NCBI GenBank assembly: GCA_903859705.1
Contig: CAIONQ010000154.1
Location: forward strand, 1-64,000
Length of the DNA stretch: 64,000 nucleotides
Reading direction: 5' to 3'
Source of the DNA: an uncultured Chthonomonas sp.
GTDB lineage: Bacteria > Armatimonadota > Chthonomonadetes > Chthonomonadales > Chthonomonadaceae
Shown here: positions 47,099-49,824 of the stretch, piece after piece
Numbering within the stretch: position 1 is the first letter of the stretch
How the letters are laid out: every line of letters starts with the position of its first letter
Notes under the pieces: model-generated
What the model was told of the DNA's origin: nothing
What the model saw: the letters and a program-made list of their open reading frames with translations, nothing else
Databases searched by the model: none
Position numbers and translations under genes: made by a program

Positions 47099-47208
47099 GC
47101 TTCTGAATTGCTGTAATATTCATAAAGAAAACAGTTGCAAGGGTGCAATGGCAATGCACAGCACGCTGTGGAATTGGGGGTGTTTTGTACAAGATATTCT
47201 GACTATTT

Positions 47209-47225
47209 GTCTACCTGTGGTAGAC
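47209..47225. promoter_or_regulatory. Palindromic operator candidate upstream of the TA module
   Basis: GTCTACC (47209-47215) and GGTAGAC (47219-47225) are perfect inverted arms with a TGT loop. It lies 150 bases ahead of the Panacea-domain gene and overlaps a possible promoter (TTGTCT at 47207, TAGGTA at 47230, 17-base spacer). Autorepression of a TA operon through such a site would be typical. Confidence 0.5.
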
Positions 47226-47376
47226 TCAGTAGGTAATGAGTGCATAGTTGCAATTAAACCATAATTCAGGTGATTACTGTGAGGCCAGGAACGGCTGACA
47301 CCATGTGCATGTGCGGCCGGCGAAGGTAGTTGTGAACTTGCGGTTAAAGCACTCAGGTAAGGGAAGGGGTATCCGA

Positions 47377-47937
47377 ATGTTTCGTCAAAATAAGGCTACC
47401 GCGATGGCTGTTTATTTTTTGAGATTATCGCCGGACCACCAGCTAAACGACTTAACGTTGATGAAGTTAATGGTAATTTCCGAGCGGATGTGCATGGCGC
47501 AGACGACATCATTGATCACGGGATCTCAATTTTACAGTATGCAAAACGGGCCGGTGCTGTCAGATGTTTTGAGTTTGATGAAGGGCAAAACAACTTCACC
47601 GTTGTGGAGCCAGTGCATTGAGTTTGTCCCGCATATTGGCCAAGATTCTCCTTCGAACCATTGTGTTTTGAAGCAAGATATGGACGTGACTGAATGGCTC
47701 TCGGATTTTGAGATTGAACTAATAGATAAAGTGTGGCATGAACACGGTGGTAAAGAAAAATGGACACTGGTCAACCTTACACATACCTTTCCAGAATGGG
47801 ACGAAACGTGCGCAAGCACAAAGTCATCAGCTCCTATATCACTTGAAACGATATTTGAGCACGGCCTATCCGAGCCACATTCGACGGCAGTTGAGCGCGC
47901 TCAGGAAATAGAGTACTTCGAGGCGGTTTCTGCATAA
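47377..47937 (+). CDS. Panacea (DUF4065/SocA-like) domain antitoxin
   Basis: A 186-residue protein. The ATG at 47377 follows AAGGGG by seven bases; the open frame begins earlier at 47305. The N-terminal block MAVYFLRLSPDHQLNDLTLMK, then ISERMCMAQTTSLITGSQFY, MQNGPVLSDVLSLM and WLSDFEIELIDKVWHEHG matches the Panacea domain (DUF4065, SocA-like). Panacea-domain proteins serve as antitoxins that neutralise diverse unrelated toxins. The gene immediately downstream, within a few bases, is a candidate toxin. The C-terminus (SEPHSTAVERAQEIEYFEAV) may contact the toxin. Confidence 0.85.
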   Translation: MFRQNKATAMAVYFLRLSPDHQLNDLTLMKLMVISERMCMAQTTSLITGSQFYSMQNGPVLSDVLSLMKGKTTSPLWSQCIEFVPHIGQDSPSNHCVLKQDMDVTEWLSDFEIELIDKVWHEHGGKEKWTLVNLTHTFPEWDETCASTKSSAPISLETIFEHGLSEPHSTAVERAQEIEYFEAVSA

Positions 47938-47943
47938 GTGGTA

Positions 47944-48366
47944 ATGAAAGCTGCTGAGGGAAGTGTCTATAAGATAGATTTGCGCGATGGCAAGCCTGCA
48001 CATTACTGGATAATCTTGCACGATCCGCAAATAGTAGACGGTAGGTTTCTTACAGTTTCTCTTACGGACCGCCACAATCTTGATCCCGTCTCCGATGTCT
48101 GGGAATTTAACTATTCCATTTGCCCTGCCCTCAAGCTCTCGAAACCCTCCATTGTTGCCCTGCGGTATGTACTCGTAAAAACCCAATCATGGCTCGACGA
48201 GAAAGATGCGGAGTTCATCTGTACGTGTAACGCCGCCACGTTGAAGCGAGCGCGGTGCAATCTGTTATGGTATCCCAGGTTCCTCAGCAGCGACGCAAAT
48301 AGGCTGGTGCAGTTCTATACAAACTCCTGGGATCCTTGTGGATCAGCTCCACCTAACAAGCCGTAG
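47944..48366 (+). CDS. PemK/MazF-like candidate toxin
   Basis: A 140-residue protein whose N-terminal half resembles the PemK/MazF SH3-like barrel: EGSVYKIDLRDGKPAHYWII, LTVSLTDRHNLDP and ALKLSKPSIVALRYVLV. The typical GD-V-DL opening, the conserved TD/N loop and the PS motif fit, so the predicted activity is mRNA interference, but the similarity is by eye and the C-terminal half (CTCNAATLKRARCNLLWYPR) is unfamiliar. It begins immediately after the antitoxin stop: GTG at 47938 or ATG at 47944. Another possibility is a novel toxin of the Panacea system. It is followed directly by the repeat field. Confidence 0.6.
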   Translation: MKAAEGSVYKIDLRDGKPAHYWIILHDPQIVDGRFLTVSLTDRHNLDPVSDVWEFNYSICPALKLSKPSIVALRYVLVKTQSWLDEKDAEFICTCNAATLKRARCNLLWYPRFLSSDANRLVQFYTNSWDPCGSAPPNKP

Positions 48367-48371
48367 CGGAT

Positions 48372-48412
48372 TTTTATGAAAGGCAATTCTACCGCGCTTC
48401 GCTTGCTGGGAG
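48372..48412. repeat. Repeat B, copy 1
   Basis: Starts TTTATGAAAGGCAATTCTAC and continues CGCGCTTCGCTTGCTGGGAG. Related copies occur near 49003, 49089, 49318 and 49503. In the first and third copies a GCCTGCCGGATGG stretch follows. Confidence 0.6.
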
Positions 48413-48480
48413 TCAGGAGCCAGTGTGAAATGCCGCCTGCCGGATGGAACGCGGTGCTTGGCGCGTGCTTTTTGTTTTTC

Positions 48481-48531
48481 ACGCGAAGGCCGCTAAGCTA
48501 TCATGTTGTTTCGCTTGCTGGAACGCTGTGC
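48481..48531. repeat. Repeat A, copy 1
   Basis: Begins ACGCGAAGGCCGCTAAGCTA and continues TCATGTTGTTTCGCTTGCTG, ending GAACGCTGTGC. Near-identical copies lie at 48802-48854 and 48881-48931, so this is a recent or constrained repeat family of about 52 bases. Confidence 0.7.
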
Positions 48532-48801
48532 TAACCGGGAGGTGTATGTTTACTCACGCAAGGCCGCAAAGATTCTCACGAGCGCATGGTACCTTCGTAG
48601 CAAGCGTTGCAGATGTGGAATGTTGTGACTTCCAGCAGCCCAGCGTGCCCCAATGAAAGGGCCAAAGTACAACGCTTATTCAAACGGTACCGTGAGCGAC
48701 CCGTGTTTGTAGGGGCGCCGCTCTGCCGCGCCCGCAAGCTATCAGTTTCAAGCCCGGCAAACTACCGATAGGCTGTGCAAACCTGGGGCTTTTTTATTCC
48801 T

Positions 48802-48854
48802 CGCGCGAAGGCCGCTAAGCTATCATGTTGTTTTGCTTGCTGGAAGGCTGTGCG
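48802..48854. repeat. Repeat A, copy 2
   Basis: CGCGCGAAGGCCGCTAAGCT followed by ATCATGTTGTTTTGCTTGCT; the GGGGCTTTTTT tract precedes it, as it does for copy 3. Confidence 0.7.
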
Positions 48855-48880
48855 AATCTGGGGCTTTTTTTTATTACTTG

Positions 48881-48931
48881 CGCGAAGGCCGCGAAGCTAT
48901 CATGTTGTTCTGCCTGTTGGAAAGCTGTGCT
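48881..48931. repeat. Repeat A, copy 3
   Basis: CGCGAAGGCCGCGAAGCTAT followed by CATGTTGTTCTGCCTGTTGG and AAAGCTGTGC. It is 79 bases after copy 2 (start to start), with only about 26 bases between the two. Confidence 0.7.
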
Positions 48932-49002
48932 CGAGCCAAGGGAAGATAGAGCGGTACCAGTTCCCTCTTCGATGCATCTCTTCGCACAACGCATAACATG
49001 AT

Positions 49003-49062
49003 GTTTATGAAAAGCAATATCTACCGCGCTACGCTTGCTTGCGCGACCATTGCATTTCTGAT
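49003..49062. repeat. Repeat B, copy 2
   Basis: TTTATGAAAAGCAATATCTA then CCGCGCTACGCTTGCTTGCG and CGACCATTGCATTTCTGA. The last block is shared with copy 5 at 49503. Confidence 0.65.
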
Positions 49063-49088
49063 TCGTGGTTGGCGGGGCCAGGAAGATG

Positions 49089-49152
49089 ATGTTTACGAAA
49101 GGCAATTTGTACCGCGCTTCGCTTGCTGGGAGAAATGCGTGCCTGCCGGATG
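49089..49152. repeat. Repeat B, copy 3
   Basis: TGTTTACGAAAGGCAATTTG then TACCGCGCTTCGCTTGCTGG and GAGAAATGCGTGCCTGCCGG. It is 86 bases after copy 2. Confidence 0.6.
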
Positions 49153-49317
49153 GGTGCCGGTGCTGACCGGTACGTTGCACACCGCGAGGTAACCTATGCT
49201 GGCCCTACAGGCCTCGGAATTATTTTGAAACTGTTGTTTTCCAGCCCTATCGAGCTTCGCTATCCTATCACGCACTTTCAGCGCTTTAGTGCCGACTGCC
49301 GGATGGGTGGCACGTTG

Positions 49318-49360
49318 GTTATGAATAGCGGTATCTACCGCGCTGCGCACAAGCGAGCGG
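49318..49360. repeat. Repeat B, copy 4 (divergent)
   Basis: GGTTATGAATAGCGGTATCT then ACCGCGCTGCGCACAAGCGA. Only part of the family is retained. Confidence 0.4.
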
Positions 49361-49423
49361 GGCCGGGAGTCGGGATTCAGTGAGAAATGCTGCCTACCGG
49401 TTGGAAGCCTGTGCGTGCCGCAG

Positions 49424-49491
49424 ACTACCATCCCCCGCCCCAACCCGCCCGCCAGGGGCGGGAGTCAGATGCCGCCTGCCGGTCCCGAGCG
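49424..49491. repeat. CTACCATCCCC-type repeat, copy 3
   Basis: CTACCATCCCCCGCCCCAAC followed by an inner CCCGCC ... GGCGGG hairpin and GCCGCCTGCCGG. It resembles the repeat at 33344 in the ileS-ilvA region, 16 kb away. Confidence 0.5.
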
Positions 49492-49502
49492 ACGCAGAAG
49501 CG

Positions 49503-49569
49503 GATGTTTATGAAAGGCGATGCCTACCGCGCTGCGCTTGCTTGCGCGACAATTGCATTTCTGAACTGT
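49503..49569. repeat. Repeat B, copy 5
   Basis: GATGTTTATGAAAGGCGATG then CCTACCGCGCTGCGCTTGCT and TGCGCGACAATTGCATTTCT. Its 3' block matches copy 2. Confidence 0.65.
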
Positions 49570-49824
49570 GATTATCTGATCACCTTAGTACGAAGCATTA
49601 ACCTCTCGTCAAATCTTTGTTCCCTGGCGCACTTGCGTGATATTTATCGGGGACCTCGCAACCCAGAACCACGTACCAACCCTCAGCATCACACGAGAGC
49701 TCTGCACAATTTCAAATTCCCAGCACCCAATCCCCAACCCCGCGTGCGAAGCGCGCCACTTAGACCATTCCATAAGCTACAATCGGTGTAGTGATCAATG
49801 TTTCGGCAGGGGTGGTTTGCAGTG

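What the first reader, a model, noticed from the sequence alone, without database searches (positions are those of the whole stretch)
47377..48366. Panacea antitoxin with a PemK/MazF-like candidate toxin
The upstream gene is a Panacea-domain (DUF4065) protein. Panacea antitoxins are known to pair with many toxin types. The downstream gene begins within a few bases of the antitoxin stop and has PemK/MazF-like features in its first half but an unfamiliar second half. A perfect GTCTACC/GGTAGAC palindrome sits upstream. The pair might be a new toxin type for this system.
Basis: partly seen in the sequence, partly recalled or inferred. Interest (0 to 1): 0.7.

Follow-up and report, generated by a model that had tools for sequence, protein, structure and literature searches.

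The report
Panacea antitoxin with MazF-like toxin
This is a two-gene toxin-antitoxin module in an uncultured bacterium (Armatimonadota): a Panacea antitoxin followed by a distant MazF-like toxin, a pairing already published elsewhere, here in a divergent and previously unnamed branch.

Summary
Window 47377-47937 encodes a Panacea (PF13274, E 2.7e-16) protein; a 142-codon gene starts at the next base (47938, GTG) and matches no Pfam, NCBIfam, PADLOC or PDB sequence. The pair is conserved, in the same order and 0-1 base apart, in three other genomes of the same order. A model built without distant toxin homologues gives the second protein a MazF/Kid fold (Foldseek top 25 all MazF/Kid, best E 7.6e-3; Kid Z 7.9, 3.1 A over 93 residues). 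Its profile also matches a widespread family of ~135-aa Panacea partners in prophages, plasmids and other Armatimonadota (E 4.4e-8, reversed controls 0.07-0.17); 60 of 60 viral members with upstream sequence have Panacea directly upstream. MazF/PemK-like Panacea-neutralised toxins are already published (PMC8832971; PMC7556043). So this is a divergent new member of a known kind, not a new toxin type. Open point: the MazF catalytic loop (EQxGxRP) is missing and an invariant histidine (H22) lies near it, so RNase activity is inferred only. The upstream palindrome lies in a 17-base block shared exactly with one relative; it is probably a promoter/operator element.

The parts
47206..47226 (+). Probable promoter/operator element: TTTGTCTACCTGTGGTAGACT, holding the 7+3+7 palindrome at 47209-47225
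   Evidence: 17 bases identical upstream of the orthologous pair in G027 (-171 here, -146 there) although the rest of the leader is not conserved; no other exact copy in 31 genomes of the order. Function inferred.
47377..47937 (+). panA-like antitoxin gene: stand-alone Panacea (SocA/DUF4065) domain, 186 aa
   Evidence: PF13274 E 2.7e-16; 46-71% identity to orthologues in three genomes of the order; AlphaFold pLDDT mostly 80-97
47938..48366 (+). panT-like toxin gene: MazF/Kid-fold protein, 142 aa, GTG start directly after the panA stop
   Evidence: MazF/Kid fold; homologous to the Panacea-partner family (hhalign E 4.4e-8); pair conserved

Best explanation
A type II-like toxin-antitoxin module (PanAT). 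The second gene makes a MazF-fold growth inhibitor that most likely stops translation by cleaving RNA; the Panacea protein binds it directly and keeps it inactive. The two genes are translated from one message, with the toxin start placed at the antitoxin stop so that antitoxin is made first, and expression is probably driven from the conserved element at 47206-47226. The module moves between genomes as a unit. Shown here: gene pairing, conservation, Panacea identity, MazF-like predicted fold, homology to the widespread Panacea-partner family. Inferred: toxicity, neutralisation, RNase activity, regulation, and any role in mobile-element maintenance or phage defence.
For: Panacea by Pfam. The same pair in the same order, 0-1 base apart, in G034/L016, G028/L017 and G027/L018, each with a TTG start at the antitoxin stop. 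AlphaFold model of the in-frame TAA read-through of panA+toxin, using only the four close toxin sequences: Foldseek's best 25 PDB matches are all MazF/Kid (best E 7.6e-3, probability 1.00); second look Kid 1m1f Z 7.9, 3.1 A over 93 residues, E. coli MazF 5ckd Z 7.6; BFVD rank 4 is a PemK-like phage protein. The toxin profile finds, in 291 Armatimonadota genomes, two further ORFs of normal length (G139, E 9.5e-4; G035, E 0.12), and both lie directly behind a Panacea gene. Profile-profile match to Panacea partners E 4.4e-8 over 117 columns, reversed controls 0.17 and 0.068. That family: 60/60 viral loci with upstream DNA have Panacea directly upstream. Experimental precedent: PanT of P. moraviensis and B. 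ruminantium are MazF-like by HHpred, toxic, neutralised by PanA, and inhibit protein synthesis (PMC8832971).
Against: No assay. No significant sequence match to MazF/PemK itself (hhalign E 0.014-0.055 against PF02452 proteins). The EQxGxRP catalytic loop of MazF is absent. Toxin-part confidence is moderate (pLDDT about 60-84, residues 45-73 about 40) and fused-model pTM is 0.57, so nothing is claimed about the interface. Z below 8 can by itself be a common arrangement (tool note).
Confidence: 0.8

Rival explanations
1. PanAT module whose toxin keeps the MazF/CcdB fold but not MazF chemistry: it poisons another target (for example gyrase, as CcdB does) or uses a different active site built around the invariant His22.
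For: CcdB has the same fold and appears in the structural list (Z 6.2-6.5). The MazF EQxGxRP loop is missing; H22 is invariant in all 18 family members compared, with S/T71, R104, D29 and P30 nearly so.
Against: MazF/Kid outrank CcdB (Z 7.9 against 6.5) and fill Foldseek's top 25. The validated MazF-like PanTs block protein synthesis (PMC8832971).
Confidence: 0.25
2. SocAB-like (type VI) module: the Panacea protein acts as a protease adaptor that delivers the toxin to ClpXP rather than blocking it by binding.
For: SocA is a Panacea protein that works this way (PMC8832971 citing Caulobacter work).
Against: The NCBIfam SocA equivalog model is not met (E 0.13, 11.9 bits against a cut-off of 190). 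Other tested PanAs neutralise without ClpXP or Lon and form complexes (PMC8832971).
Confidence: 0.07
3. Degenerate or inactive module: the pair was acquired but the toxin no longer works.
For: A decayed toxin fragment exists in a related genome (G054, L006:1501-1614), so loss happens in this group.
Against: Both frames are intact and show strong third-position bias of differences; start-stop junction and leader element are kept.
Confidence: 0.1

Closest known systems
PanAT of Pseudomonas moraviensis and Bifidobacterium ruminantium (Kurata et al. 2022, PMC8832971)
   Same: Panacea antitoxin with a partner that has no CDD hit but resembles EndoA/PemK/MazF; antitoxin first is the common order; the P. 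moraviensis PanA N terminus given in the paper (MIFSEQKVAQ) resembles the prophage PanAs found here (MFSEEKVAQ)
phiOS31_p23/p24 of Serratia phage OS31 (PMC7556043)
   Same: DUF4065 protein overlapping a small protein that HHpred matches to MazF-like endonucleases (COG2337, 98.94%); proposed as a TA pair
   Different: Phage-borne; untested; sequence not compared here
phrog_1281 / phrog_19071 gene pair of prophages (E. coli, Yersinia, Klebsiella, Pseudomonas, Vibrio) and plasmids
   Same: The same gene order and related families; window panA hits phrog_1281 at E 2.8e-22; the toxin is related by profile
   Different: The window toxin does not hit phrog_19071 directly; HYW replaces HLH, the HPF motif is missing, and there is an extra C-terminal tail
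MazF/PemK/Kid (PF02452)
   Same: Predicted fold; Gly at strand 1, Thr after strand 3 and Ser before strand 4 fall at matching places
   Different: No Pfam hit; no EQxGxRP loop; paired with Panacea instead of a MazE/PemI antitoxin

Membership tests
Panacea antitoxin (PF13274) | Score above the Pfam gathering cut-off over the domain | tested here: met
   60.9 bits against 25.7, profile positions 1-112 of 113
PanAT toxin-antitoxin pair | Two genes within 100 nt, conserved together in two or more species | tested here: met
   0-1 nt apart in four genomes of the order; criterion from PMC8832971
PanAT toxin-antitoxin pair | Toxin inhibits growth and PanA rescues | not testable with these tools
   Needs an expression assay
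PanAT toxin-antitoxin pair | PanA and PanT form a complex | tested here: inconclusive
   Only a covalently joined read-through model was possible; pTM 0.57
MazF/PemK (PF02452) | Sequence match to the family model | tested here: not met
   No Pfam hit at E 1; hhalign against 15 Armatimonadota MazF E 0.014-0.055
MazF/PemK (PF02452) | MazF/Kid fold | tested here: met
   Foldseek top 25 MazF/Kid; Kid Z 7.9; predicted model of moderate confidence
MazF/PemK (PF02452) | EQxGxRP catalytic loop | tested here: not met
   Window reads DLRDGKPAHYWIIL; family-wide invariant is H22
MazF/PemK (PF02452) | Sequence-specific endoribonuclease activity | not testable with these tools
   Needs a biochemical assay
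Broad Panacea-partner family (phrog_19071 type) | Homology over the length of the protein | tested here: met
   Profile-profile E 4.4e-8 over 117 columns, reversed controls 0.068-0.17; linked through intermediates L023 and L028; direct hmmscan gives no hit
SocAB (type VI) | SocA equivalog model (NF047745) | tested here: not met
   E 0.13, 11.9 bits against 190

The most novel reading that the evidence does not exclude
The window protein and its Panacea-linked relatives are MazF-fold toxins with a rebuilt active site: the MazF Arg/Glu loop is gone and an invariant histidine at the start of strand 2 (H22), with Thr43, Ser71 and Arg104, does different chemistry or recognises a different target.
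Probability: 0.25. Interest if true: 0.5.

Novelty: new member of a known kind. Interest (0 to 1): 0.3.

Why it matters
It extends Panacea-MazF-like modules to a branch of Armatimonadota that no current family model recognises, links it to the partner family common in enterobacterial prophages, and gives a testable site (H22) for how Panacea-neutralised MazF-fold toxins act without the MazF catalytic loop. It does not add a new toxin class.

Tried and rejected
Sequence searches of the toxin against Pfam, NCBIfam, PADLOC, PDB, phages, viral contigs and plasmids gave nothing useful (the one plasmid hit at E 0.08 lies in an oxidoreductase gene). The single genome-collection scan returned only the three genomes already found. 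The second structure job, on a prophage relative (L133), gave pLDDT 54 and was not used for fold searching; its strand/helix order looks alike but proves nothing. A mixed alignment of window and prophage toxins misaligned the C-terminal half in MAFFT and was not used for modelling. Palindrome as an operator in its own right: not supported, because the relative shares the left arm and spacer but not the full right arm (GGTACAA) and no second copy exists in the genome with up to one mismatch. The read-through fusion is only a modelling device; no claim is made that TAA is read through. Weak profile hits with internal stops (L025-L027 and others) were taken as chance.

Full report
What is there. 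The window lies in contig C154 of an Armatimonadota genome (order-level relatives include Chthonomonadales records). At 47377-47937 an ATG-started gene encodes a 186-aa protein whose residues 28-141 match Pfam SocA_Panacea almost end to end (E 2.7e-16). At 47938, the very next base, a GTG-started 142-aa gene begins. The second protein has no match in Pfam, NCBIfam, PADLOC or the PDB sequences. An alternative GTG 72 nt upstream would lengthen the first gene, but all three orthologues start at the same MFR, so ATG 47377 is preferred.

Is the pair real. A search of 291 genomes of the phylum finds full or contig-cut toxin relatives in G034 (51% identity), G028 (44-46%) and G027 (71-75% over the 59 residues before the contig ends), all in the same order. 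In each the Panacea gene lies directly upstream and the toxin start (TTG) is 0 or 1 base after the stop. Differences fall mainly on third codon positions (toxin against G027: 11/8/42; panA: 43/32/100). G027's PanA, from another family, is closer to the window's (71%) than to that of G034, its own family (59%), which suggests horizontal movement. The one same-genus genome held (G043) has no Panacea hit, and there the hydrolase that precedes the pair is followed directly by a paralogous hydrolase, so the pair is a gained or lost unit. Orthology of the second hydrolase is not certain.

What the second protein is. AlphaFold was run on the in-frame TAA read-through of both genes (a modelling device), with toxin rows restricted to the four close relatives, so the fold was not biased by distant homologues. 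The toxin part shows strands at toxin residues 9-13, 22-26, 36-44, 73-82 and 92-96 and helices at 83-88, 99-111 and 118-128, with a poorly predicted insertion at 45-73 (model number minus 187). Foldseek's first 25 PDB matches are all MazF or Kid/PemK (best E 7.6e-3, probability 1.00). VIA-align gives Kid Z 7.9 (3.1 A, 93 residues), E. coli MazF 7.6 and CcdB up to 6.5. In the viral library a PemK-like protein is rank 4 (E 1.2e-2). These numbers are moderate, but they point to one superfamily only.

Its wider family. Panacea genes on plasmids and phages that resemble the window's are nearly all followed by a 119-139-aa protein; those scanned match phrog_19071. Of 80 viral loci holding this partner, 60 have DNA upstream and all 60 have Panacea there; 20 are cut by the contig end. 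Within Armatimonadota, other Panacea genes carry recognisable members (L136, L137, L142, L143, L146, L149) as well as several other partner types. The window subfamily connects to this family: profile-profile E 4.4e-8 over 117 columns against 0.068-0.17 for reversed controls, with G139/L023 and G035/L028 as intermediates that were found by the toxin profile without using Panacea and turned out to lie directly behind Panacea genes.

How it most likely works. By analogy with the validated MazF-like PanATs, the toxin blocks translation, probably by cutting RNA, and PanA neutralises it by direct binding (PMC8832971). The immediate stop-start junction suggests coupled translation. A caution: the MazF loop EQxGxRP, clear in MazF proteins of the same phylum, is absent here; the reading is DLRDGKPAHYWIIL, and the only fully invariant residue of the wider family is H22 (18 of 18). 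Profile similarity to MazF itself is below significance (E 0.014-0.055). The fold therefore supports 'works like MazF' but the sequence does not make it a PF02452 member, and a CcdB-like target or altered chemistry is open.

The palindrome. GTCTACC-TGT-GGTAGAC (47209-47225) is real but such repeats are common (0.38 per 330 bp). What raises it above chance is that TTTGTCTACCTGTGGTA occurs exactly in the G027 leader, 146 bases before its panA, although the leaders are otherwise poorly conserved, and nowhere else exactly in 31 genomes. In G027 the right arm reads GGTACAA, so the symmetry is not kept; an extended -10-type promoter (TGG-TAGACT / TGG-TACAAT) or a one-sided operator is as likely as a dimer site. 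This is inference from sequence.

Compared with what is known. Panacea's many partners were set out by Kurata et al. 2022, who predicted PemK-like partners and validated two MazF-like ones; Serratia phage OS31 p23/p24 is a published pair of the same design; MazF/PemK is among the commonest folds in the NetFlax TA network (PMC10440598). The window pair is therefore a new, divergent member of a known kind. Interest 0.3.

Noticed in passing
window 48363-49573: The intergenic stretch between the pair and the next hydrolase is full of imperfect direct repeats: a 45-nt unit with TTTATGAAAGGCAAT..CTACCGCGCT (5 copies) and a 77-82-nt unit with GCGAAGGCCGCTAAGCTATCATGTTGTT (3 copies).
   Followed up: partly
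L006:1501-1614 (genome G054): A 38-codon stretch matches only the toxin C terminus (RRECHVAG...FYRNAWEPCGSAPPHR), with no Panacea gene found in that genome: probably the remnant of a decayed module.
   Followed up: partly
L144, L151, L154, L156, L157, L158, L161 (Armatimonadota Panacea loci): A second recurrent Panacea partner type (LGDxFPE...PGxVLYLxCxFTxPxKxKYVVxAC...DYxFLxHDSFLDCS), perhaps another MazF-like branch; weak match to the prophage partner profile (E 4e-6 to 0.1).
   Followed up: no
L155, L159, L162 (and perhaps L135, L138; Armatimonadota Panacea loci): Another partner type of about 140-160 aa ending in ...FSLRxxxKxRxxGIxxGxVxxxLWWDPxHxVC, downstream of short Panacea proteins.
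   Followed up: no
fused model residues 1-150 (window 47377-47826): The Panacea domain gives a second-look structural match to a chain of the M. tuberculosis DarTG toxin-antitoxin complex (7yk3_B, Z 8.8, but 5.7 A over 139 residues).
   Followed up: no
L054-L133 (IMG/VR prophage contigs): In many near-identical records the prophage contig begins exactly at the toxin start or shortly upstream of Panacea, i.e. the predicted prophage edge falls at the module.
   Followed up: no
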